Shown in pieces: positions 10,616-25,206 of a stretch of DNA of 61,581 nt. The DNA comes from an uncultured Oscillospiraceae bacterium (lineage in GTDB: Bacteria; Bacillota; Clostridia; Oscillospirales; Oscillospiraceae): assembly GCA_934573935.1 (NCBI GenBank), contig CAKTMO010000009.1, positions 1 through 61,581 of the forward strand. Reading direction: 5' to 3'. The notes beneath the pieces were generated by a model, which was not told the DNA's origin, did not search any database, and saw only the letters and a list, made by a program, of their open reading frames with translations. The first letter of the stretch is position 1; each line of letters begins with the position of its first letter. A program made the position numbers and the translations under genes.

Positions 10616-10745
10616 GCCTCCCTCTGACGAGGGAGGTGTCGAGCGCAAGCGAGACGGAGGGAGAGACAGAAATGCAAGAAGTCTAACAAACGCCGGTCTC
10701 TCCCCCAGTCACCTTCGGTGACAGCCCCCTCGTCAGAGGGGGCCT
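10616..10745. repeat. Family B composite inverted repeat
   Basis: CCTCCCTCTGACGAGGGAGG at the left is matched by CCCCCTCGTCAGAGGGGGCC at the right. Inner short hairpins (GTCGAGCGCAAGCGAGAC; GTCACCTTCGGTGAC) and GGAGGGAGAGA / TCTCTCCCCC blocks lie between. Related composites occur at 12528-12650 and 17732-17850. Confidence 0.8.
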
Positions 10746-14652: not shown

Positions 14653-16620
14653 ATGGAACACAACGACACGGCCCAGTCCGTTATCGCCAGGGACGCGGCG
14701 GCGGCCATGGCGGCCACCGACGCCGCCGCCATCCTGACGCGCCTCAGGATCGGTCCCGAGGAGTTGCGCAGGGCCAACGGCATCCTGAAGCGGTACAAGC
14801 AGGGCAAGCTCCGGCTGGAGCAGCGGATCATCGACAACGAGCAGTTCTGGAAGCTGCGCCACTGGGAGCAGATGGAGAAGGAGGGGCACGGTGGCAACAG
14901 CGACGATCCCCAGCCCGCCAGCGGATGGCTGGTAAACTGCATTTTGTCCAAGCATGCCGACGCCATGGACTGCTATCCCTCCCCCACCGTGCTGCCCCGT
15001 GAACCGGACGACAGGACGGAGGCCCAGACGCTGAGCCGCATCCTGCCAGCGGTGCTGAAAAAGAATCAGTTCAAGCGGACGTATTCCTCCGCCTGGTGGT
15101 ACAAGCTGAAATCCGGCTGCGCCGTGTACGGCGTGTTCTGGGACGGCACGAAGCTGGGCGGGCTGGGGGACATCAGCGTAAAGCGGATGGATCTGCTGAA
15201 CCTGTTCTGGGAGCCGGGCGTCACGGACATTCAGGACAGCGCACACTTTTTCTCCACGGAGCTGGTGGACAATGAAAAGCTGCTGGCGGACTATCCCCAG
15301 CTGGAGGGGAAGCTGGGACGGGGCGGCTTTACGCTGAGCCGCTATCTCTATGACGACACGGTGGACACCAGCAGCAAGTCACTGGTGGTGGACTGGTACT
15401 ATCACACCACCGTGGAGGGACGGAAGGTGCTGCAATACTGTAAATACGTGGGAGAGACGGTGCTGTATGCCACGGAGAACGACACGGCGCAGCCCACGGA
15501 GACGCGGTTTCTGGGGACAGACGAGGAGGGACGGCCCGTGATGGGACAGGTCCCCTGCGGCCTCAGCATGGCCCAGCGGGGCTGGTACGACCACGGAAAA
15601 TATCCCTTTGTGTTCGACGTGCTGTTTCCGGAGGAGGGCACGCCCTGCGGGTATGGGTACATCGACCTGTGCAAGAGTCCCCAGAAGCAGATCGACCTGA
15701 TGAATCAGGCGATCCTGAAGAACACGCTGGCCAACGCCACGCCGCGCTTTTTCATCCGCTCCGACGGGGCGGTGAATGAAAACGAGTACGCCGACTGGAC
15801 GCGGCCCTTCGTCCACACCAACGGCAATCTGGGGGCGGACTCCATTGCGCCCATCCGCGCGGGGAGTCTGGACAGCGTATATGTGGCGATCCTGAACAAC
15901 AAGATCGGCGAGATGAAGGAGACGGCGGGCAACCGCGACGTGGCCAACGGCGGCACCGCCGCCGGTGTGACGGCGGGCACCGCCATCGCCGCCCTACAGG
16001 AGAGCGGCGGCAAGCTGAGCCGCAACATGATCGACGACGGGTACGAGGCCTTTGCCGACGTGGTGACGCTGTGCATCGAGCTGATCCGGCAGTTTTATGA
16101 GCTGCCCCGCCAGTTCCGGCTGCTGGGGGCCATGGGAGTAGAGGAGTTCGTCAGCTATGACCGCAGCGGCCTGCAGCCCAGGGCCATGGACGATGGCGGG
16201 AACGTATCCTACCGCGTGCCGGAGTTTGATCTGGAGATCGGCGCGGAGCGGGAGAGCCCCTATCGCACGGCGGAGGCCAATCAGCTGGCGCTGCAGCTGT
16301 TCCAGATGGGGTTTTTCCGCGAGGAGCTGGCGGATCAGGCGCTGCGGTGTCTGGAGCTGATGGAGTTCAAGAACAAGGATCAGCTGGCACGGATCATCTC
16401 CGGCGGGCAGACCCAGGCCAGGGAGATCGCCGCCCTACGGCAGCAGCTTTTGCAGCTGGCTCAGGTAGTGGACGCGGCCAAGGGCACCCGTCTGGCAGAG
16501 AGCCTGACGGCGGAACAGGGCATGGCCTCCGCCGCACCCGACACGGCCCGCGGGGCAGAGAGCGCCGACGCCATGGAGCGCAGCAGAAGGCTGTCACGAG
16601 AGGTGGTGCGGCCCCGATGA
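14653..16620 (+). CDS. Phage-type portal protein
   Basis: A 655-residue protein resembling podovirus (P22-like) portals, the dodecameric ring through which DNA enters a capsid. Evidence is the size, the position before a protease, scaffold and capsid, an N-terminal helical segment, a YYHTTVEGRKVLQYCKYVG beta region, and a long helical C-terminus with Gln-rich repeats (about 590-655). The ATG follows AAGGAGG (14641-14647) by 5 bases. It is the first gene of a plus-strand block that breaks the minus-strand run of housekeeping genes. No terminase gene lies before it; the upstream neighbour is a divergent chromosomal methyltransferase. The portal call rests on context and pattern, with no diagnostic residue to cite. 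Confidence 0.78.
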   Translation: MEHNDTAQSVIARDAAAAMAATDAAAILTRLRIGPEELRRANGILKRYKQGKLRLEQRIIDNEQFWKLRHWEQMEKEGHGGNSDDPQPASGWLVNCILSKHADAMDCYPSPTVLPREPDDRTEAQTLSRILPAVLKKNQFKRTYSSAWWYKLKSGCAVYGVFWDGTKLGGLGDISVKRMDLLNLFWEPGVTDIQDSAHFFSTELVDNEKLLADYPQLEGKLGRGGFTLSRYLYDDTVDTSSKSLVVDWYYHTTVEGRKVLQYCKYVGETVLYATENDTAQPTETRFLGTDEEGRPVMGQVPCGLSMAQRGWYDHGKYPFVFDVLFPEEGTPCGYGYIDLCKSPQKQIDLMNQAILKNTLANATPRFFIRSDGAVNENEYADWTRPFVHTNGNLGADSIAPIRAGSLDSVYVAILNNKIGEMKETAGNRDVANGGTAAGVTAGTAIAALQESGGKLSRNMIDDGYEAFADVVTLCIELIRQFYELPRQFRLLGAMGVEEFVSYDRSGLQPRAMDDGGNVSYRVPEFDLEIGAERESPYRTAEANQLALQLFQMGFFREELADQALRCLELMEFKNKDQLARIISGGQTQAREIAALRQQLLQLAQVVDAAKGTRLAESLTAEQGMASAAPDTARGAESADAMERSRRLSREVVRPR

Positions 16621-16919
16621 TCCAGGTGGTCATGCGTGAAAACGCCGTGTGGGCCTATGGCCACAGCAGCCGCGGCCCCAAGGGGCGGGACGTGGTGTGC
16701 GCCGCCGTCAGCATGCTGATGGAGGCCACTGCCGCCGCGCTGGAACAGCAGGACCGGCTGGCGCTGTGCTATTTCAGCAGCGGCTTCGGCTCCATCATCG
16801 CGACGGAGGACTGCGAAACGCTGGAGGTGGCGCGGCAGGGCTTTTTGCTGCTGGCGCAGCACTGCGGAAACGACGTGAAGGTAAGGGACCTTCGGACAAG
16901 GAGGATACAGCATGCATGA
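16617..16919 (+). CDS. Prp-like cysteine protease in the capsid module
   Basis: A 100-residue protein that resembles Prp (YsxB), the cysteine protease that trims the N-terminus of ribosomal protein L27 in Firmicutes. It begins MIQVVMRENAV, as Prp does, and carries GHSSRGPKGRDVVCAAVS. His16 and Cys28 are 12 residues apart, matching the His/Cys dyad spacing of Prp. The C-terminal NDVKVRD also fits. Its ATG overlaps the portal stop (ATGA), and its end overlaps the scaffold start by 8 bases, so it is translationally coupled within the structural operon. In staphylococcal phage 80alpha the host Prp cuts scaffold and capsid. Here a Prp-type protein sits in the prohead-protease position, so a role in capsid maturation is inferred. 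Confidence 0.8.
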   Translation: MIQVVMRENAVWAYGHSSRGPKGRDVVCAAVSMLMEATAAALEQQDRLALCYFSSGFGSIIATEDCETLEVARQGFLLLAQHCGNDVKVRDLRTRRIQHA

Positions 16920-17484
16920 GGAACAGAAAGTGACCACCGCGCCGGAAGCGGCGGGCACGCCGGAGACGGACTGCGCGGCGGAATTTGAGACGCTGATCCA
17001 GGGGCGGTGCAGGCAGCCCTTTCAGCAGCGGGTGCAGAAGATCCTGGAGGGGCGGCTGCGTTCGCTGCGGCAGGAGAATGAGGCGCTGCGCCGTCAGGCG
17101 GCGGAGCAGCGGGAATTTGAGATCGGCTGCGTGGAGCGTCTGGCCCGCGAGGCGGAGGACATCCGCCGCGCCTACGGCGGCTTTGACTGGCAGCAGGAGA
17201 TGCGGGATCCGGCCTTTGGCCGCCTGATCGCGGCAGGGGTGGGCGGCCGCACCGCCTATGAGGTGATCCACAGCCGCGAGCTGCTGGCGCAGGCCGTGCG
17301 CTACGGCGCGCAGCGGGCGGCGGAACAGCTGAGCCGCTCTATCGCCAGCGGCGGACGGCGGGTGGCGGAAAACGGCGGCCGCGGCAGCAGCGCCGTGACC
17401 CGCACCGATCCCAAGTCGCTGAACACCGCGGAGTTGGCGGAGATCCGGAAGCGGGTGCAGCGGGGGGAGAAGATCCGGTTTTAA
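16912..17484 (+). CDS. Scaffolding-like protein
   Basis: A 190-residue protein that is largely helical. A coiled-coil stretch (about residues 40-80) has many Arg, Gln and Glu. The C-terminus is strongly basic (RTDPKSLNTAELAEIRKRV and on to the end), a property shared with phage scaffolds that dock on capsid subunits through a basic helical tail. AAGGAGG lies 7 bases before the ATG. It follows the protease gene and would precede the capsid, which is the normal scaffold position. No LQxF-A site is visible in it. The call is from context and composition only. Confidence 0.65.
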   Translation: MHEEQKVTTAPEAAGTPETDCAAEFETLIQGRCRQPFQQRVQKILEGRLRSLRQENEALRRQAAEQREFEIGCVERLAREAEDIRRAYGGFDWQQEMRDPAFGRLIAAGVGGRTAYEVIHSRELLAQAVRYGAQRAAEQLSRSIASGGRRVAENGGRGSSAVTRTDPKSLNTAELAEIRKRVQRGEKIRF

Positions 17485-17597
17485 GGGGATGTTTCGTGGC
17501 TGCGGCCACGAGGACGGCCTCCGGCGGGTGAAATGCCCCTGTGCGCTCTACCGCAAGGGTCGCCCCTACCGGCAACAACAAGAACTCGCCGCGTAAA

Positions 17598-17680
17598 CGG
17601 CGGCCTGAGGGCAGGCCGCCCTACGGAATGGCCACCGATAGAATTTTGTAGGGCGCGATGCCCTCATCGCGCCGCCGTAC
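17598..17680. repeat. Family A inverted repeat doublet
   Basis: CGGCGGCCTGAGGGCAGGCC (17598 onward) and, about 23 bases later in the opposite sense, GTAGGGCGCGATGCCCTCAT (17648 onward). Same plan as the doublets at 7571 and 40210. Confidence 0.85.
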
Positions 17681-17731
17681 AACGATTCATTTTCCCCCGT
17701 TGATGCGCGTGAGCGGCAGCGACACATCAAC

Positions 17732-17850
17732 GGCCCCCTCTGTGATGGGGCTGTCACCGAAGGTGACTGGGGGAGAGAATTTTGGATTTTCACTCTCTCC
17801 CTCCGTCATGACCTGCGGTCATGCCACCTCCCTCACAGAGGGAGGCAAAA
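17732..17850. repeat. Family B composite inverted repeat
   Basis: GCCCCCTCTGTGATGGGGCT on the left and ACCTCCCTCACAGAGGGAGG on the right flank inner hairpins GTCACCGAAGGTGAC and CATGACCTGCGGTCATG and a GGGGGAGAGA / TCTCTCCCTCC pair. It closely matches the plan of 10616-10745. Confidence 0.85.
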
Positions 17851-18054
17851 ATACGAATTTCCACGCCAGTGACATCGGTCACTGACTCGGAATGACAGGG
17901 CAGACGGCCACAGCGGGGGTTTGATATAGATGTCCGGATAGCCGGACGGGGTCGCGGGCTACCGCGGACAACACTTTTTCGGGCGCGGAGGCGCTCCTGA
18001 CGCCGGGGAGCAGAGGGTAATTGGACAAATGATTTGACAAAGGAGAGCTTTATC

Positions 18055-19290
18055 ATGACTTTTGAACACACTTTTGACCTGCAGCGCTTTGCTGAGGGCA
18101 ATGTGCAGACCACCGGCACTCAGGGTCTGAGCGCCGAAATGAAAACGTACTACGGCATGGAGCTGCTGGAAAACGCCAAGCCCGCGCTGGTACACAACCA
18201 GTTCGCCGCCACCAAGCCCCTGCCTGTGGGCGGCGGCAAGACGGTGGAGTGGCGCAAGTTCGGCAGCTTTGACAAGGCGCTGACGCCGCTGACTGAGGGC
18301 GTGACCCCCGACGGCAGTGGCATCACCGTCAGCTACATCACCAAGGAGCTGAGCCAGTACGGCGACTACACCACCGTGTCCGACATGCTGGATCTGACGG
18401 CCATCGACGACGTGGTGCTGGAGATCACCGACCGCCACGGCGCCAACATGGGTCTGACCCTGGACACCGTGACCCGCAATGAGATCCAGCAGGGCACCCA
18501 CGTGATCTATGCCCCCGGCAGGGACGCCGACGGCAAGAAGGTGGAGGTGCTGTACCGCCGCGAGCTGGACAAGAGCTGCGTGATGACCGCCGAGCTGGTG
18601 GCCCGCGCCGCCACGGAACTGAAGAAGATGAACGCCCCCACCTTTGACGGCAAGTATGTGTGCATTATCCATCCCAGCGTGGCCTTTGACCTGCGCAACG
18701 ACCCCGACTGGGTGGCCGCCCACCAGTACGCCGCCGCCACGGAGCTGTTCTCCGGTGAGATCGGCGAGCTGCACGGCGTGCGCTTTGTGGAGACCACAGA
18801 GGCCAAGATCTTCCGCGGCGACGATCTGGCCAGCGACAGCCGCACCCTGACCGCCAGCGCCGCCGCCAGCAATTCCACCACCGTCAGCTTTGACGGCGGC
18901 ACTGTGGCCGCAGGCGCGCTGGCGGGCCGCTATGTGCTGTGCGGCGGCAAGCGGGTGAAGGTGCTGTCCAACACCGCCAGCCAGCTGACGCTGGAGGAGG
19001 CCGTCACCGTGGCGGACGACGCGGTGATCTATCCCGGCGAGGGCGGCAAGGAGGGTCTGGCGGTGTACGGCTGCCTGTTCGTGGGCAAGGGCGCCTACGG
19101 CGTGGTGGATCTGAGCGAGGGCACCGAGGTCATCGTGAAGCCCCGCGGCTCCTCCGGCACCGCCGATCCTCTGGATCAGCGCTCCAGCGTGGGCTGGAAG
19201 GGCATCCACGCCGCCGCTATCCTGTACGACGAGTACATCGTCCGCGTGGAGTGCGGCAGCAGCTATTCCGCGGAAGACAAGAGCAACTGA
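18055..19290 (+). CDS. Major capsid protein, N4-gp56-like
   Basis: A 411-residue protein with the pattern of N4-gp56-family major capsid proteins (HK97 fold). Features include VEWRKFGSFDKALTPLTEG, ITKELSQYGDYTTVSDML, a long helix with DVVLEITDRHG, and the late CIIHPSVAFDLR segment. AAAGGAG lies about 9 bases before the ATG at 18055. The N-terminus reads MTFEHTFDLQRFAEG. DLQRF-A matches the LNLQ(F/H)F-A cleavage pattern of Prp substrates, which predicts cutting between Phe12 and Ala13. It is separated from the scaffold by repeat DNA but keeps the same strand and base composition. Confidence 0.85.
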   Translation: MTFEHTFDLQRFAEGNVQTTGTQGLSAEMKTYYGMELLENAKPALVHNQFAATKPLPVGGGKTVEWRKFGSFDKALTPLTEGVTPDGSGITVSYITKELSQYGDYTTVSDMLDLTAIDDVVLEITDRHGANMGLTLDTVTRNEIQQGTHVIYAPGRDADGKKVEVLYRRELDKSCVMTAELVARAATELKKMNAPTFDGKYVCIIHPSVAFDLRNDPDWVAAHQYAAATELFSGEIGELHGVRFVETTEAKIFRGDDLASDSRTLTASAAASNSTTVSFDGGTVAAGALAGRYVLCGGKRVKVLSNTASQLTLEEAVTVADDAVIYPGEGGKEGLAVYGCLFVGKGAYGVVDLSEGTEVIVKPRGSSGTADPLDQRSSVGWKGIHAAAILYDEYIVRVECGSSYSAEDKSN

Positions 19291-19308
19291 CGCAAGGAGG
19301 AACGTGAT

Positions 19309-19530
19309 ATGGTGAAGAAGCAGGAGGCGGCTGAGGGAATGGTCAGCGTGATCATCCCCAGGGGGCGCAAGCAGGAGGAGAACTTTGTGATCGTCTCGAT
19401 CAACGGACACAGCTGGAAGATCATGAAGGGCGTGCAGGTGGAGGTGCCTGATTACGTCCGCGAGGTGCTGGTGAACAGCCGCATGATGGCGGATGAGGCC
19501 CGCCGCTATGTGGACAGAATGGCGGACTGA
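19309..19530 (+). CDS. Small protein after the capsid gene
   Basis: A 73-residue protein with a short, charged N-terminus and a VSINGHSWKIMKGVQVEVPD core, then a helical C-terminus (YVREVLVNSRMMADEARRYV). AAGGAGG lies upstream of the ATG, and the gene sits 18 bases after the capsid. The position suggests a decoration, head-completion or fibre-docking protein. I do not recognise the family. Confidence 0.6.
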   Translation: MVKKQEAAEGMVSVIIPRGRKQEENFVIVSINGHSWKIMKGVQVEVPDYVREVLVNSRMMADEARRYVDRMAD

Positions 19531-19543
19531 GGAGGTGACGCCC

Positions 19544-19903
19544 ATGGCGAACATCACAGCCGGTCAGGTACTGGCCCAGGTGGACGCGCTGACGCCCAAC
19601 CAGTACACCCGCACGGAAAAGCTGCGGTGGCTCTCGCAGGCGGAGGGCTTCGTGCTGCGGGAGATCCGCGGGGTGACGGGGCCGCTGGCGGAGCTGACGG
19701 AGGGCTCTTCCCTGTCGGCGGAGCCGCCCTATGACGAGCTGTACCGGCACTATGTGGAGGCGCAGATCCACTACTGCAACGGCGAGATGGCGCGGTACAA
19801 CGCCGCAGCGGCCAACTGGAACAACGGCTTTTTGACCTACCGCGACTACGTATGCCGCACGGTCATGCCGCGGCGGAGCGTCAGGGCGCTGAAAGTATGC
19901 TAA
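19544..19903 (+). CDS. Head-tail adaptor-like protein
   Basis: A 119-residue protein: MANITAGQVLAQVDALTPNQ, then LRWLSQAEGFVLREI, then a helical YHVEAQIHYCNGEMARYNAA-type segment. The size, helical make-up and place between capsid and tail hub fit the adaptor (gp4/gp6-like) proteins of tailed phages, which sit under the portal. The ATG has GGAGGTGA 8 bases upstream and begins 13 bases after the previous stop. Function is inferred from position. Confidence 0.6.
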   Translation: MANITAGQVLAQVDALTPNQYTRTEKLRWLSQAEGFVLREIRGVTGPLAELTEGSSLSAEPPYDELYRHYVEAQIHYCNGEMARYNAAAANWNNGFLTYRDYVCRTVMPRRSVRALKVC

Positions 19904-19907
19904 CGCG

Positions 19908-19943
19908 GCGGGGCGGGAGAGACGGCTCTCTCCCGCCCCGTTT
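19908..19943 (+). terminator. Strong GC-rich hairpin between adaptor and tail hub genes
   Basis: GGGGCGGGAGAGA pairs perfectly with TCTCTCCCGCCCC over a 4-base loop, followed by GTTTC. The T-run is short, so it may slow or partly terminate transcription, or mark an RNA processing site, and is probably not a full stop. Confidence 0.55.
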
Positions 19944-19960
19944 CAGGAAGGAGGAACGCG

Positions 19961-21673
19961 ATGTTTCTATCGCAATTTGCCGCGCCCCGGCAGCAGCGGC
20001 TGACCGTCAGCAAATTCGGCGGGTATGACGCCCGTCCCAGGGCGCCGCTGGGTGCCTTTTCCCGCATGGAGAATCTGAGCGGAGACGGGTATCCCACGCT
20101 GAGCACCCGCGAAAAGCGCAAGCGGATCGCCGCGCTGGACAAGCCCAACGGGCTGGCGGCCAAGGACTGCCTGATCTGGGTGGACGGGCGCACGCTGTAC
20201 ATCAACGGCGCGGCCATCGACCTGACGCTGACGGAGGGGGAAAAGCAACTGGTCAGTATGGGGGCGTATCTGCTGATCTGGCCCGACAAGAAGTACGTCA
20301 ACACCCAGGATCTCAGTGACAGGGGCAGTCTGGAGAACACGGTGCAGACCACCGGCACCGTCACCTTTACGCTGTGCCGCACGGACGGTACGGCGTATGA
20401 GGGATACACCACCGGCGCGGCGGCGCCCGCCAGCGCCGAAAGCGGCGACCTGTGGCTGGACACCAGCTCCGTCGCAGCGCTGCTGCGCTATGACGGCGTC
20501 ATGTGGGAGACGGTGGACGACCTGGCTATGAAGCTGTCCGCCGCCAACATCGGCAGGGGCTTTTCCGCGGGAGACGGCGTGACCATCTCCGGCTGCACGG
20601 GGGCGACGGTGGACGGCACGTGGACGCTGCTGCAATGCGCGGACAACGCCATCGTCATCGGCACGGCGGCGGCCATTGAGGGCGACCAGAGCGCCGCGGT
20701 GACGGTGCGGCGCTATGTGCCGGACATGGACTTCGTGGTGGAGTGCGGCAACCGGCTGTGGGGCTGCAAATACGGCATTGTGGACGGGCAGAGCGTCAAC
20801 GCCGTATACGGCAGCGCACTGGGGGACTTCCGCAACTGGAACGCCTTTGCGGGGCTGGCCACCGACAGCTATGCCGCCGCCCGGGGCAGCGACGGTGTGT
20901 TCACCGGCGCGGCGGCGTATCTGGGGACGGTGCTGTTTTTCAAAGAGCACAGCGTGGAGCGGCTGTACATCAGCGCCGCGGGCGCACACCAGATCACATC
21001 GCTGCAATGCCCCGGCGTGAAGCAGGGCAGCGGCCGCTCGCCGGTGGTGGCGGACGGCGTGCTGTACTATCACGGCGCGGGAGGCGTGTACGCCTTTGAC
21101 GGCAGCATGCCGCAGCTGGTGTCCGCCGCCTTTGGCGACGAGCGGTATGAAAACGCGGTGGGCGGCGCGTCGGAGGGGCACTACTGGCTATCGGCCCAAC
21201 GAAATGGCGAGAGCCATCTGCTGATCTATGACACCGCCCGCGGGTTGTGGTACCGGCAGGACGGTCTGCGGGTCCGGCAGTTCGCCCGCAGCGGCGGCGT
21301 GCTGTACGCGATGACGGCGGACGGCATCACGGCGCTGCAGGGCGGCGATGCGGCGGATGAGACGGACATTGACTGGTACGCCGAGACCGGTGAGCTGGGG
21401 CTGGACACACCGGAGCAGAAGTATGTGCAGCGCGTAGAGCTGCGGCTCTTGCCGGAGGACGGCGCGTGGGTGCGGGCGTATCTCAGCTATGACGAGGGCC
21501 GCCACTGGCAGTATGCCGGTGAGATGCGGGGCGGCCCCCAGCGGATGCGGTGGGGATCGATGGTGGTGCGGCCGGTGCGGTGCGCCCAGCTGCGGCTACG
21601 GCTGGTGGGACACGGCGGGTGCCGTATCTACAGCATCAGCGCCGTGTATGAGAAAGGGAGTGACCTGCCGTGA
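19961..21673 (+). CDS. Tail hub / stopper-like protein (P22 gp10-like plan)
   Basis: A 570-residue beta-rich protein. It opens with FLSQFAAPRQQRLTVSKFGG and a PRAPLGAFSRMENLS segment, then repeated strand motifs (LIWVDGRTLYINGA, VECGNRLWGCKYG, LFFKEHSVERLYIS, VVADGVLYYHGAGGVYAFDG). This resembles the beta-propeller-like tail hubs of podoviruses that plug the portal. AAGGAGG lies 7 bases before the ATG, after a strong hairpin. The next gene starts at a GTG overlapping its stop. The assignment rests on fold pattern and order. Confidence 0.65.
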   Translation: MFLSQFAAPRQQRLTVSKFGGYDARPRAPLGAFSRMENLSGDGYPTLSTREKRKRIAALDKPNGLAAKDCLIWVDGRTLYINGAAIDLTLTEGEKQLVSMGAYLLIWPDKKYVNTQDLSDRGSLENTVQTTGTVTFTLCRTDGTAYEGYTTGAAAPASAESGDLWLDTSSVAALLRYDGVMWETVDDLAMKLSAANIGRGFSAGDGVTISGCTGATVDGTWTLLQCADNAIVIGTAAAIEGDQSAAVTVRRYVPDMDFVVECGNRLWGCKYGIVDGQSVNAVYGSALGDFRNWNAFAGLATDSYAAARGSDGVFTGAAAYLGTVLFFKEHSVERLYISAAGAHQITSLQCPGVKQGSGRSPVVADGVLYYHGAGGVYAFDGSMPQLVSAAFGDERYENAVGGASEGHYWLSAQRNGESHLLIYDTARGLWYRQDGLRVRQFARSGGVLYAMTADGITALQGGDAADETDIDWYAETGELGLDTPEQKYVQRVELRLLPEDGAWVRAYLSYDEGRHWQYAGEMRGGPQRMRWGSMVVRPVRCAQLRLRLVGHGGCRIYSISAVYEKGSDLP

Positions 21674-22434
21674 GCGATTTCCCCATGCCGCCGTATCCCA
21701 ACGGATCGGTACAGCAGCAGCTGACACAGCAGTATTCCTATCTCTTCCAGATGGCTCAGCAGCTGAACATGGCGCTGTCGGCGCTGGAGGGCGGGCAGAC
21801 CGGCATTGCCGGCAGCACCGGCGTGCAGCGGAAGACCGGCACCGCGGCCAGCGCCGCCGGAAAAGCAGCGCTGGAAAACCGTGAGCAGTTTCAGAATCTG
21901 CGGGCCATGATCATCAAGACCGCCAAACAGGTGACGCGCAGCATGGAGCAGCTGGAGGTGCGGCTGGGGGAGGAATACGTGGCCTCCTCCCAGTTTGGCA
22001 CCTACGTGCAGCGGTTGAGCGCCTATCTGGAGGCCAATCCGGAGGCGCTGACCCAGTATTACAGCTTTTGCAGCGACCTGGCCGCCAATGTGGCGGCGGT
22101 GGACGCCGCCTTTTCCACCTATAAGCTGGACACAGAGGGCTACATCCGCACAGGCATCGTCTACTACGACGGCCCCGCGCCGGTCTACGGCGTGGCGGTG
22201 GGGCAGAATCTGACCACCACAGAGGTGGATGGCCGTCAGGTGGTGGAGCAGAACAACTTCCGCGCCGTGTTCACCGCCCAGCGGCTGAGCTTCTGGCAGG
22301 ACAGCACGGAGATCGCCTATGTGTCCAACAACCGGCTGTACATCACCAACATCACGGTGCTGGACAGCGTCAGCATCGGCCCGTGGCGCATGGACAGCGC
22401 CAACGGACTGTCATTCAAATGGATCGGAGGATAA
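21670..22434 (+). CDS. Tail-associated protein with coiled coil, unrecognised
   Basis: A 254-residue protein that starts at GTG overlapping the hub stop (GTGA), with a GGGAG site 9 bases upstream. The N-terminal 60 residues are Gln/Ala/Gly-rich, residues about 70-150 are helical, and the C-terminal 90 residues are strand-rich (DTEGYIRTGIVYYDG, VSIGPWRMDSANGLSFKW). The final GPWRMDSANGLSFKWIGG region resembles attachment or assembly ends of tail proteins. I cannot name the family. Confidence 0.6.
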   Translation: MSDFPMPPYPNGSVQQQLTQQYSYLFQMAQQLNMALSALEGGQTGIAGSTGVQRKTGTAASAAGKAALENREQFQNLRAMIIKTAKQVTRSMEQLEVRLGEEYVASSQFGTYVQRLSAYLEANPEALTQYYSFCSDLAANVAAVDAAFSTYKLDTEGYIRTGIVYYDGPAPVYGVAVGQNLTTTEVDGRQVVEQNNFRAVFTAQRLSFWQDSTEIAYVSNNRLYITNITVLDSVSIGPWRMDSANGLSFKWIGG

Positions 22435-22436
22435 GC

Positions 22437-24011
22437 ATGGCCATCACAGAAAAAGATTTCACCCTGAGCTGGGGGGACATTACCATCGGCGCGGCCAATA
22501 CGCTGGTGGCGACGCGGCCCTCCTCTTTATACAGCTTCCGGTTCCGCTACAGCTTTCAGGGCATCTCCGCCGACATCTCCGCCGCACAGCTGACGGTCGT
22601 ATCCCAGGAGGAGACCCGCGTGGTGTTCCGCTGGATGCCGGAGGAGAGCCTGTGTCTGACCCTTCCCGACAGCGTGTCCGGCACCGGCGTGCTGACCATG
22701 ACGGTGGCCTATACCAGCCGGTTCGACCAGCTGAGCAACCCCAATTTCTGCACCAAGAGCTATCCCTTTACCGCCTATGTGCCGGACGCCATGCGCCCCA
22801 GCGCCACGCTGGCGGTGACGCTGGTGAATGACAACGCGCTGCTGGACCAGTGGGGACTGTGGGTGCGGGGCATGAGCCGACTGCAATACACGGTGGAGGC
22901 CGCCGCCGTGGGCGGTGCGCGGCTGACGGAGTGCCGCTTTACCTTTGCCGGACAGACGGTAAAGGGGTTCTCCGGCGTCACCGCTCCCATCGGCATGGCG
23001 GGCACGCTGACGCCCACGGCGGTGGTAACTGACTCCCGCGGCCGCACCGTTACGGTGACGGCCACGCCGGCGGCGGTATTCGACTATCAGACGCCGGCAT
23101 TGCAGACATCGGTGGCCTTCCGGTGCAACACCGCCGGTGTGGAGGACAGCGGCGGCGCCTGCCTGCGGGTAAAGGCCGCCGGTTCCTGCTGGCCGCTGGA
23201 CGGCCGCAACACCGTGACGCTGCGGGCCCGCTATCGCCCCGTAGGGGGCGAATACGGCGGCTACACCACATTGGTCAGCGGCCTGACCACCCAGATCGCC
23301 GAAACGCTGGACAAGGACACCACCTATGAGGTGGAGCTGTCCGCCGCAGACACGGTGGGCAACGTCCGCGCCGTCAGCTATACCTCCTCCAACGCGGCGG
23401 TGGCCTTTCACCTGCGCAGCGGCGGCGTGGGGGCCGCCTTCGGCAAGCTGGCGGACAGTCCTACCCTGCAATGCGCCTGGGACGCGGGGTTTGACGGCGA
23501 CGTGACCGTGGCGGGCAGGGTGGCGGCGGGCAGCCTTACCGTGGGCGGCAAAACGCTGGTGGACCTGCTCTACCCCGTGGGGTCGCTGTATCTGTCCACG
23601 GCGGAAACGGATCCCGCCGTCGCCCTGGGCGGCACATGGCAGCGGATCCGCGACCGGTTTCTGCTGGCGGCGGGCCAGACCTATGCCGCTGGCGCCACCG
23701 GCGGTCAGGCTGTCCAGACGCTGACCGAGCAGCAGCTGCCGCCCCATCTGCACCATGTGGAGGGCTTTACCAGCGTGGACTCCACCACTCACGACCACGG
23801 TATCCCCAACGTGGGACAGGGCGGCTCCGGCAGCGGCGTTTATGCCGAAAGCTGGAGCGGCGGCTCCGGCGGCCGCACGCTGAACACCGACGCACTGTGC
23901 ATCAATCACGACCACACGGTGGACATGGATTCCCAGTCCACCGGCGGAGGCCAGCCCTTCAGCATCCTGCCGCCCTATCTGGCGGTGTATGTCTGGCAGC
24001 GGCTGAGCTGA
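22437..24011 (+). CDS. Tail-tip protein with DUF859-like body and collar-like C-terminus
   Basis: A 524-residue beta-rich protein. The body resembles DUF859, a family found in phage tails, with VAFHLRSGGVGAAFGKLA near residue 325. The last 140 residues begin LLYPVGSLYLS and contain TWQRIRDRFLLAAG, as in phage collar or baseplate tip proteins. Three HxH motifs lie at about residues 437-439, 452-454 and 491-493. Such motifs coordinate metal in the trimeric tips of some tail fibres. CGGAGG lies 6 bases before the ATG at 22437. It is the best candidate for the cell-binding protein of the particle. Confidence 0.72.
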   Translation: MAITEKDFTLSWGDITIGAANTLVATRPSSLYSFRFRYSFQGISADISAAQLTVVSQEETRVVFRWMPEESLCLTLPDSVSGTGVLTMTVAYTSRFDQLSNPNFCTKSYPFTAYVPDAMRPSATLAVTLVNDNALLDQWGLWVRGMSRLQYTVEAAAVGGARLTECRFTFAGQTVKGFSGVTAPIGMAGTLTPTAVVTDSRGRTVTVTATPAAVFDYQTPALQTSVAFRCNTAGVEDSGGACLRVKAAGSCWPLDGRNTVTLRARYRPVGGEYGGYTTLVSGLTTQIAETLDKDTTYEVELSAADTVGNVRAVSYTSSNAAVAFHLRSGGVGAAFGKLADSPTLQCAWDAGFDGDVTVAGRVAAGSLTVGGKTLVDLLYPVGSLYLSTAETDPAVALGGTWQRIRDRFLLAAGQTYAAGATGGQAVQTLTEQQLPPHLHHVEGFTSVDSTTHDHGIPNVGQGGSGSGVYAESWSGGSGGRTLNTDALCINHDHTVDMDSQSTGGGQPFSILPPYLAVYVWQRLS

Positions 24012-24036
24012 CAACACACGACAGGAGGAACGATTT

Positions 24037-25206
24037 ATGGCATCTACATACCGTCAGGTGGGCTACGGCTCCACCGGCAGCGCAGTCAGCCAGCTGCAGA
24101 CCGTATTGAACCAGCACGGCTACGATCTGGCTGTGGACGGCATTTTCGGCGAAAAGACCCAGGCCGCTGTGCGGGACTATCAGAAAAAGAACAATCTGAA
24201 GCTGGACGGCATCGCCGGAAAGGAGACCTGGGGCAGTCTGATGGCCGTCCCCGACAGCTCCGGCAGCAGCAACGGCAGCGGCGCGGGCACAGCTTTCGGC
24301 GGTGGCCCTGCATCCGGCTCCGGCGGCAGCGTCAGCTCCGGCAGCGCGGCCACGGGCCGCGTATCCGCCGCCACTGCCGCCGCCCTGAAGCGGCTGGAGC
24401 AGGGCTATGCCCCCTCTGACGAGGCCAGCGAGGCCCGCAGCCGTCTGGACAGTCTGTCCGCCGGAAAGCCGGGGGACTACGCCTCCCGCTTCACGCAGCA
24501 GCTGGAGGAGCTGTATCAGGAGATCAGCGGCCGCCCGGGCTTTGCCTATGACCCCGCGGCAGATCCGGCGTATCAGTCCTATGCCCGCCAGTATGCCCGT
24601 CAGGGCAGCGCCGCCATGCGGGACACGCTGGGGCAGGCGGCCCATCTGACCGGCGGGTACGGCTCCAGCTATGCCCAGTCCGCCGCCCAGCAGGCGTATC
24701 ACAGCTATCTGCAGAAGCTCTCAGACGTGCTGCCCCAGCTGCAGTCCGCCGCCTACAGCCGCTATCGTGACGCGGGCGACGCGCTGCTGGACCGCTACAA
24801 GCTGCTGCAGGGGCAGGAGGCGGAGGAATACGACCACTGGCAGGATCAGGTGGCCGCGTGGCAGAAGGAGGTGTCCCAGGCCCAGAGCCGCTATGACCAG
24901 ATCAGCAGCCGCGACCTGAAAAACTATCAGCTTCTGCTGAACTACTACGCCGACAAGGCTGCCGCCGAACAGAAGGGCATGCGCTTCGCCGCCGAGACCA
25001 CCGAGGCCGTATCCAGCACCGGCAACACCGCCTCCCTCAGCTCCACCGCGGCGGACAGTCTGGAGCGGATCATGAACCGCTATCTCAAGCAGGGGAAAAC
25101 CCAGCAGGCCGACATATTACTCAAACAGTACAAAAGCCGCATGACACCGGCGCAAAAGAGCCGTTTTGAGACACTTTTTGCCGCAAAACGGCGCACTGTT
25201 GACTGA
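24037..25206 (+). CDS. Peptidoglycan-binding protein ending the particle block
   Basis: A 389-residue protein. Residues about 5-70 form a PG_binding_1 domain (GYGSTGSAVSQLQTVLNQHG; GIFGEKTQAAVRDYQKK; LDGIAGKETWGSL). A Gly/Ser linker follows (about 75-110). The remainder is helical, with GRPGFAYDPAADPAYQSYA and LTGGYGSSYAQSAAQQAYH, then a KLSDVLPQL helix and a Lys/Gln-rich C-terminus. AGGAGG lies 8 bases before the ATG. It could anchor or insert the particle at the cell wall or act as an internal ejection protein. No lytic catalytic motif is visible. Confidence 0.7.
   Translation: MASTYRQVGYGSTGSAVSQLQTVLNQHGYDLAVDGIFGEKTQAAVRDYQKKNNLKLDGIAGKETWGSLMAVPDSSGSSNGSGAGTAFGGGPASGSGGSVSSGSAATGRVSAATAAALKRLEQGYAPSDEASEARSRLDSLSAGKPGDYASRFTQQLEELYQEISGRPGFAYDPAADPAYQSYARQYARQGSAAMRDTLGQAAHLTGGYGSSYAQSAAQQAYHSYLQKLSDVLPQLQSAAYSRYRDAGDALLDRYKLLQGQEAEEYDHWQDQVAAWQKEVSQAQSRYDQISSRDLKNYQLLLNYYADKAAAEQKGMRFAAETTEAVSSTGNTASLSSTAADSLERIMNRYLKQGKTQQADILLKQYKSRMTPAQKSRFETLFAAKRRTVD

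What the first reader, a model, noticed from the sequence alone, without database searches (positions are those of the whole stretch)
16617..16919. Prp-type cysteine protease in the prohead-protease position
The 100-residue product has GHSSRGPKGRDVVCAAVS with His16 and Cys28, spaced as in Prp, the protease that trims L27. It overlaps portal and scaffold genes. In phage 80alpha, Prp of the host matures the capsid. A Prp-like enzyme carried in a capsid operon would be a self-encoded maturation protease. It was not evident as an independent frame, because a longer overlapping frame covers it.
Basis: partly seen in the sequence, partly recalled or inferred. Interest (0 to 1): 0.85.

Follow-up and report, generated by a model that had tools for sequence, protein, structure and literature searches.

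The report
Capsid-trimming protease in phage-like gene cluster
A bacterial chromosome carries an inherited set of phage head and tail genes with its own small Prp-type protease, which probably trims the capsid protein of virus-like particles; whether such particles are made and what they carry is not known.

Summary
Window 16617-16919 is a 100-codon gene between portal and scaffold genes; its product is a Prp-family cysteine protease (PF04327 35.5 bits, cut-off 27; Prp fold). The motif is present in 27 of 29 related modules with their own Prp, against 1 of 5 genomes where no Prp was found; two contigs fuse Prp to scaffold with motif copies between. Cutting itself is untested. The arrangement is not new: Enterococcus and Oenococcus phages carry an annotated 'peptidase' there. 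More interesting is the setting. The module lies between ordinary host genes, with no terminase found in the window. Its close form occurs in 19 of 32 genomes of one genus, largely follows the host tree, and all its genes but Prp show dN/dS below 0.4. It resembles a domesticated podovirus-like gene transfer agent, as reported in 2026 from Faecalibacterium without mention of a protease. That part is about even odds: deep branches conflict, and other mobile genes lie within 5-15 kb in one genome.

The parts
14653..16620 (+). Portal protein (P22-like), first phage gene of the module; no terminase upstream
   Evidence: PF16510 90.8 bits, phrog_156 241.8 bits; next gene upstream is a methyltransferase on the other strand
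16617..16919 (+). Prp-family cysteine protease, dyad His16/Cys28, Asp25; the finding
   Evidence: PF04327 35.5 bits; phrog_4478; AF2 pLDDT 89.6, pTM 0.81; matches 1s12, 7kld, 7jvs, 2g0i, 2g0j, 2idl, 4peo
16912..17484 (+). Probable scaffold protein (no Prp motif at its own N-terminus; several relatives have one)
   Evidence: phrog_13908, unknown function, E 6.7e-32; position between portal and capsid; homologous to the C-terminal part of Prp-scaffold fusions
17485..18054 (+). Stretch between scaffold and capsid genes holding a repeat with a hairpin
   Evidence: inverted arms 17736-17756/17822-17842; same 23-base core at 10702-10724 on the other strand; the gap is about 135 bases in relative L005
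18055..19290 (+). Major capsid protein, N4-gp56 family; proposed substrate
   Evidence: TIGR04387 248.7 bits, cut-off 60; phrog_1357
18055..18090 (+). Codons for MTFEHTFDLQRF, the 12 residues proposed to be removed; cut before Ala13 (codon at 18091)
   Evidence: match to the L27 and 80alpha capsid cut (F|A) in PMC9405229 and PMC5744158; motif in 61 of 1148 distinct predicted proteins, 60 of them capsid, scaffold or L27
19309..19530 (+). Small conserved module gene, unknown function
   Evidence: phrog_15239; dN/dS 0.09
19547..19903 (+). Conserved module gene, unknown function
   Evidence: phrog_12105 E 8.6e-19 for the frame from 19493
19961..21673 (+). Internal virion type protein
   Evidence: phrog_511 'internal virion protein', 178 bits
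21670..22434 (+). Conserved module gene, unknown function
   Evidence: weak phrog hits only; no Pfam hit at 0.01; kept in relatives
22437..24011 (+). Tail or collar protein with Gp10_C domain
   Evidence: PF21939 63.7 bits, PF05895 49.5 bits; phrog_372
24037..25206 (+). Protein with N-terminal peptidoglycan-binding domain, last module gene
   Evidence: PF01471 65.7 bits
13559..14515 (-). Host flank: methyltransferase gene (then ABC/cobalt-type transporter genes and truA)
   Evidence: PF10672 52.3 bits; neighbours PF00005, PF02361, PF01416; 95% identical and in the same place in L005
25364..26347 (+). Flanking sortase-like gene
   Evidence: PF04203 25.3 bits, just under its cut-off of 26.6; same place in L005

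Best explanation
The gene encodes a dedicated capsid-maturation protease of the Prp family, distinct from the host's L27 protease. It is made from the head operon with portal and scaffold, and cuts the major capsid protein after Phe12 (MTFEHTFDLQRF|AEGN), releasing a 12-residue N-terminal tag before or during procapsid maturation; in relatives whose scaffold carries the motif it would cut that too. Shown here: family, fold, active-site residues, operon position, substrate motif, co-occurrence across genomes, natural Prp-scaffold fusions. Inferred: that cutting happens, when, and that this enzyme rather than the host Prp does it. The operon belongs to a chromosomal module that I think most likely makes gene-transfer-agent-like podovirus particles, with terminase genes elsewhere in the genome (about 0.5 likely; separate from the protease claim, to which the confidence below refers).
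For: Family and fold. Own-Prp modules with the motif 27 of 29, genomes with no Prp found 1 of 5, Fisher p 0.0015. Specificity of the motif: 60 of 61 motif-bearing proteins among 1148 are capsid, scaffold or L27. L27 is short (starts MAHKKG) in the three Prp-less genomes where it was found (G049, G094, G106). Fusion: two contigs carry Prp and scaffold in one frame with MMDLQLF|A between them. Separate lineage: the 13 rows that lie beside L27 form one branch, 95/85. In the close lineage the module Prp is present in 17 of 17 relatives whose portal-scaffold gap could be read. Module: same flanks in L005; 9 of 14 branches shared with the topA tree, permuted mean 0.21, maximum 3; dN/dS 0.09-0.39 for the other module genes, GC3 like the host; one TerL by PF03237 in 17 of 20 genomes.
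Against: No biochemical data. A second, L27-type Prp is present in 19 of 20 module genomes and could do the cutting. The window's Prp evolves fast: 52% identity and dN/dS 0.64 against G001, when capsid is 92%; three other pairs give 0.27-0.34. G118 and G061 have a module Prp (G061 24.9 bits, under cut-off) and no strict motif; G106 has the motif and no Prp found. G077 and G097 show no L27 either, so their lack of Prp may be missing sequence. The co-occurrence test ignores kinship; some rows are near-copies (G004, G025, G027) or from one genome (G005, G030 twice). In 80alpha cleavage of the capsid protein is dispensable (PMC5744158, abstract and passages). For the module: three host branches at 90-100 are absent from the module tree, G013 carries another lineage, no terminase was found in the window, and in G008 integrase, RepA, Mob and recombinase genes lie 5-15 kb from the module.
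Confidence: 0.78

Rival explanations
1. The host's own Prp (the L27 protease) cuts the capsid protein, as in phage 80alpha, and the module Prp has another job or no activity.
For: An L27-type Prp (69.9-82.5 bits, whole model) is present in 19 of the 20 module genomes; only module-type hits were listed for G005. 80alpha uses host Prp. A contig with a related capsid but no Prp found (MT835607) still has a motif, GFQFF|A.
Against: The module Prp keeps its dyad in 78 of 78 sequences and is present in 17 of 17 readable close relatives. Module substrates have no Phe at P2 (0 of 35), host L27 has it in 13 of 13 genomes of this group, which suggests separate enzymes. Against that hint: the scaffold of phiFL3A, a phage with its own Prp, has LQFF|A, and L27 of two more distant Clostridia has IQLF|A.
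Confidence: 0.13
2. On the carrier: a decaying prophage remnant, head and tail genes left after loss of terminase, integrase and replication genes, of no present use.
For: No terminase match within the 61.6-kb window with 18 related TerL proteins (best E 0.21); a repeat lies between scaffold and capsid genes; Prp dN/dS 0.64.
Against: All ten frames are open; the module with the same flanks is open in L005 at 75-92% identity except Prp 52%; dN/dS of the nine other genes 0.09-0.39; G001 keeps an intact TerL on another contig; branching largely follows the host.
Confidence: 0.2
3. On the carrier: a functional temperate phage or satellite, with the remaining genes elsewhere.
For: A related contig looks more phage-like, with a weak Rep-like hit (20.5 bits, cut-off 27.8) and a gp3-type packaging protein (MT835607). 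The wider distribution is patchy, 41 of 300 genomes of the family. In G008 two integrase genes lie 8-15 kb upstream and RepA, Mob and recombinase genes 5-9 kb downstream of the module.
Against: In G008 uridine-kinase-like, cytidylate-kinase-like, dehydrogenase, thiamin pyrophosphokinase and acetyltransferase genes separate the integrases from the module. The ten flanking window genes scanned are ordinary host genes. No named phage among 50,697 records has this portal: 9 matches, all unannotated faecal scaffolds.
Confidence: 0.2

Closest known systems
Host Prp / YsxB (MEROPS C108, PF04327), e.g. S. aureus Prp 7kld/7jvs
   Different: 17-18% identity, shorter; lies in a capsid operon, not beside rpmA; far below cut-off in the ten NCBIfam 'ribosomal-processing' models listed (best 26.6 bits against 136); outside the branch of the 13 L27-linked rows
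Phage-borne Prp genes: Enterococcus phage phiFL3A gp45 (DUF464), Oenococcus phages phi9805 and Krappator27 'peptidase'
   Same: Same slot, overlapping the portal gene; scaffold and capsid proteins of these phages also carry the motif
   Different: A minor head protein gene comes next; whole phages with terminase; weak partial matches, 36-45% identity over 31-46% of the protein, E 0.01-0.9
Phage 80alpha of S. aureus
   Same: Capsid and scaffold cut by Prp at F|A
   Different: Uses host Prp; no phage protease of its own
FpGTA of Faecalibacterium (PMC12946183, 2026)
   Different: Words protease, Prp, peptidase absent from the main text; terminase in the operon; homology to this module not tested, since no Faecalibacterium sequence was reachable
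Phage-encoded prohead proteases, and the clan-CR protease of phage Cp-1 cited in PMC9405229
   Same: Small protease gene by, or fused to, the scaffold (fusion); Cp-1 enzyme trims a capsid N-terminus
   Different: Classical prohead proteases have other folds (recalled); the Cp-1 enzyme was not compared here

Membership tests
Prp family (PF04327 / MEROPS C108) | Profile match above curated cut-off | tested here: met
   35.5 bits, cut-off 27
Prp family (PF04327 / MEROPS C108) | His-Cys dyad 12 residues apart in the GH...D.VCA..S context | tested here: met
Prp family (PF04327 / MEROPS C108) | Prp fold | tested here: met
Prp family (PF04327 / MEROPS C108) | Proteolytic activity lost in the Cys mutant | not testable with these tools
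   needs bench work
L27-processing Prp (ribosomal equivalog) | Gene beside rpmA and NCBIfam equivalog score | tested here: not met
   capsid operon; best 26.6 bits against cut-off 136; relative G001 has a separate Prp beside L27
Prohead (capsid maturation) protease | Gene in the head operon next to scaffold and capsid genes | tested here: met
   kept in relatives
Prohead (capsid maturation) protease | Cleaves a capsid or scaffold protein | tested here: inconclusive
   matching site FDLQRF|A present; cutting not shown
Gene transfer agent | Head/packaging/tail cluster without integration or replication genes, among host genes | tested here: inconclusive
   true of the window module and its ten scanned flanking genes, but packaging (terminase) genes are absent from the window, and other mobile genes lie 5-15 kb away in G008
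Gene transfer agent | Vertical inheritance and purifying selection | tested here: inconclusive
   9 of 14 branches shared with topA, with well-supported conflicts; dN/dS below 0.4 except Prp 0.64
Gene transfer agent | Packages and transfers random host DNA | not testable with these tools
   needs particles

The most novel reading that the evidence does not exclude
A genus of Clostridia (probably Oscillospiraceae) carries, in most of its genomes, a podovirus-like gene transfer agent with its own Prp-family maturation protease. The protease and its capsid and scaffold substrates have parted from the host L27 system at the residue before the cut (P2 never Phe in module substrates, always Phe in host L27 of this group), so that two Prp enzymes in one cell read separate substrates; where a lineage lacks Prp and the L27 extension, the capsid motif is usually gone too.
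Probability: 0.36. Interest if true: 0.8.

Novelty: new variant of a known kind. Interest (0 to 1): 0.6.

Why it matters
It is a tractable case of a ribosomal-protein protease family turned into a dedicated capsid-maturation enzyme, possibly inside a bacterial DNA-transfer device. Few gene transfer agents are known outside Alphaproteobacteria; the 2026 study reports GTA-like packaging in Oscillospiraceae (Onthomonas) but gives an operon only for Faecalibacterium. This module is a candidate for the missing genes, if its host is of that family, which is suggested only by the source name of one related protein (P0238). The motif is a cheap marker for more members.

Tried and rejected
One viral-contig scan (of 8 allowed) with the 16-row Prp alignment: 24 stretches, none a relative; not taken further. 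The single protein against PDB sequences gave only E 0.089 for a Prp chain; the 22-row profile gave five Prp-family sequences at E 2.7e-12 to 1.3e-6. lysS as a second host marker gave many fragments and was not used, so the host tree rests on topA alone. Left out of the co-occurrence test: G003, G023, G100 (strict motif, module Prp not on the contig), G021 and G026b (no motif, Prp not readable), G076 and G118b (LNLRRF|D), and the four faecal contigs (motif and Prp in all four). The capsid stretches in that test were copied. Two rows labelled host (G100b, G100c) are not beside L27 and fall with module Prps; holding all 15 labelled rows as one clade was not rejected (p-AU 0.14). Trees used genomes with all genes (20, then 17 after leaving out G013, G049, G092, whose modules are distant). 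The regular expression for Prp missed G061, which PF04327 found at 24.9 bits. Faecal contigs MT836218 and MT837590 are 97.6-98.0% identical to chromosomal loci of G012 and G008; packaged or contaminant DNA cannot be told apart. Literature listings only, open-licence PMC: I saw no paper on phage-borne Prp as maturation protease in the listings, nor on such a protease in a GTA in those; most listed papers were not opened. On checking, the odds of the novel case were lowered from 0.42 to 0.36 because of the phiFL3A scaffold and the mobile genes near the G008 module.

Full report
WHAT IS THERE. The frame at 16617-16919 (+) is a 100-codon gene overlapping portal and scaffold genes. It scores 35.5 bits against Pfam Peptidase_Prp (cut-off 27) and 38.6 bits over residues 1-86 against PHROG 4478 'peptidase'. 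The ten NCBIfam Prp equivalog models listed score far below cut-off (best 26.6 of 136), so it is a Prp-family member but not the ribosomal equivalog. Fifteen close homologues (55-99% identity) came from the protein collection; a 22-row profile matched 7487 of the 8000 candidates scored, one named by its source as ribosomal-processing cysteine protease Prp of an Oscillospiraceae bacterium.

SUBSTRATE MOTIF. The capsid protein (TIGR04387, 248.7 bits) begins MTFEHTFDLQRF|AEGN. S. aureus L27 is cut as MLKLNLQFF|ASK, and 80alpha capsid and scaffold proteins between F and A (PMC9405229, parts of sections 1 and 3 read; PMC5744158, abstract and passages). The pattern [LIVY]QxF[AGS] in the first 25 residues occurs in 61 of 1148 distinct predicted proteins of the loci then held: 47 capsid proteins, 6 scaffolds, 6 L27, one capsid fragment and one unrelated protein (the loci are redundant, so counts are not independent). 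The window's own scaffold lacks the motif.

CO-OCCURRENCE. Of 29 modules with their own Prp on the same contig, 27 have the motif (exceptions G118, G061). Of five genomes with a related capsid gene and no PF04327 match (G049, G077, G094, G097, G106) only G106 has it; Fisher p 0.0015, kinship not corrected, near-copies included. L27 is short (MAHKKG) in G049, G094 and G106; no L27 was found in G077 and G097, which may be incomplete. In two faecal contigs, MT836159 and MT836324, Prp and scaffold are one frame of 317 and 365 residues; MMDLQLF|A lies between the halves, with a second LQLF|A in one. An internal start there would also give free scaffold, as recalled for lambda C/Nu3.

OWN ENZYME OR HOST ENZYME. 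G001, the nearest relative with the module among genomes held, has a second Prp beside L27. In a tree of 48 Prps the 13 rows that lie beside L27 form one branch (95/85) and module Prps lie elsewhere. At the residue before the cut Phe (P2), 27 module capsid and 8 module scaffold motifs have L, M, R, V, K or A, never F; L27 of the 13 genomes of this group that I read has F. MT835607, a related contig with no Prp found, has GFQFF|A. This hints at separate substrate reading, but is no rule: the scaffold of phiFL3A, a phage with its own Prp, has LQFF|A, and L27 of two more distant Clostridia reads IQLF|A.

THE CARRIER. The ten module genes lie in 14653-25206, between a methyltransferase gene and a sortase-like gene. 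Ten flanking window genes scanned are ordinary host genes: methyltransferase, transporter parts, truA, rhomboid, ferredoxin oxidoreductase pair, acetate/butyrate-kinase type, TetR, FeoB. Eighteen related TerL proteins find no terminase in the window (best E 0.21). L005 (uncultured Clostridia MAG, genome G001) has the same module with the same flanks, 52% (Prp) to 92% (capsid) identity; its portal gene ends nine codons early, so it no longer overlaps Prp. In G001 the only PF03237 terminase is on another contig, beyond iorA, kinase and TetR genes that in the window lie downstream of the module and are followed by FeoB instead. In G008, one 2.55-Mb contig, TerS-TerL-portal-Prp-scaffold-capsid-tail genes lie together; an acetyltransferase and thiamin pyrophosphokinase lie upstream, and a transglutaminase-like gene downstream that recurs beside the module in 6 of 26 mapped loci and may belong to it. 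Two integrase genes lie 8-15 kb upstream of that module, beyond kinase, dehydrogenase and other host genes, and RepA, Mob and recombinase genes 5-9 kb downstream; I take them for other elements, but did not show it. A gene clustering with a NUDIX protein lies near TerL in 10 of the 18 mapped loci that hold TerL.

INHERITANCE. Portal matches in 23 of 32 genomes of G001's genus; adding capsid matches, 25 of 32. Nineteen of the 32 hold the close lineage (portal 67-87% or, for G003 and G021, capsid 79-81% identity); six hold a more distant one at 53-57%. In the family, 41 of 300, nearly all at lower identity. The genomes are drafts of unknown completeness. PF03237 TerL: one in 17 of 20 module genomes, two in two, none in one. 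For 17 genomes the portal+capsid+g570 tree shares 9 of 14 branches with topA (permuted labels: mean 0.21, maximum 3 in 5000); Mantel r 0.63, 0 of 5000 as high. Three host branches with support 90-100 are absent from the module tree; its differing branches have 20-81. Three distant modules were left out beforehand; one, G013, clearly conflicts with its host's place. dN/dS window against G001: portal 0.19, capsid 0.34, scaffold 0.29, g570 0.24, g254 0.20, tail 0.39, Prp 0.64; four host genes 0.05-0.15, sortase-like 0.46. GC3 of module genes 0.82-0.89, of host genes 0.78-0.88; overall GC is a little higher in the module (0.65) than on either side (0.62, 0.60).

KNOWN RELATIVES. Prp-like genes after the portal are annotated in phiFL3A (gp45, DUF464) and Oenococcus phages, and their scaffold and capsid proteins, in Oenococcus also the major tail protein, carry the motif. 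So a phage-borne Prp in the prohead-protease slot is a known arrangement in the records, though I saw no paper on it in the listings. The portal matches 9 of 50,697 phage records, all unannotated faecal scaffolds; the best named capsid matches, Bacillus phages of the Page type, are 33-34% identical. The nearest published system is FpGTA of Faecalibacterium (PMC12946183: abstract, one results section, discussion, one methods section and passages read), whose main text names no protease.

VERDICT. Maturation protease for its own capsid: likely (0.78). Domesticated, GTA-like module: about even. Kind: new variant of a known kind.

Noticed in passing
L170:4835-5788 (+), L171:5404-6501 (-): Prp and scaffold fused in one frame, with Prp cleavage motifs between the two halves, in two faecal contigs filed as Bacteriophage sp.
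   Followed up: partly
L168 (MT836218), L169 (MT837590): Contigs filed as phages are 97.6-98.0% identical to chromosomal loci of genomes G012 and G008; L168 includes the sortase-like flank gene. Either misfiled or packaged host DNA.
   Followed up: partly
L062:6178-7542 (G001 contig 27): Intact large terminase gene apart from the module, near kinase and TetR genes; in the window FeoB follows TetR instead.
   Followed up: partly
window 17736-17842 and 10702-10724: A repeat with a hairpin, one copy inside the module between scaffold and capsid genes, its core also near truA.
   Followed up: partly
L220, L221, L222 (G094, G049, G106): Three genomes with no PF04327 match have short L27 starting MAHKKG; two of the three have a related capsid protein without the motif.
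   Followed up: yes
L204:11351-11710 (G076): A Prp-like gene upstream of the terminase instead of after the portal, in a module whose capsid reads LNLRRF|D.
   Followed up: no
L061:3259-6770 and L060:5590-13043 (G008): RepA, Mob and recombinase genes downstream and two integrase genes upstream of the G008 module: probably other mobile elements close by.
   Followed up: partly
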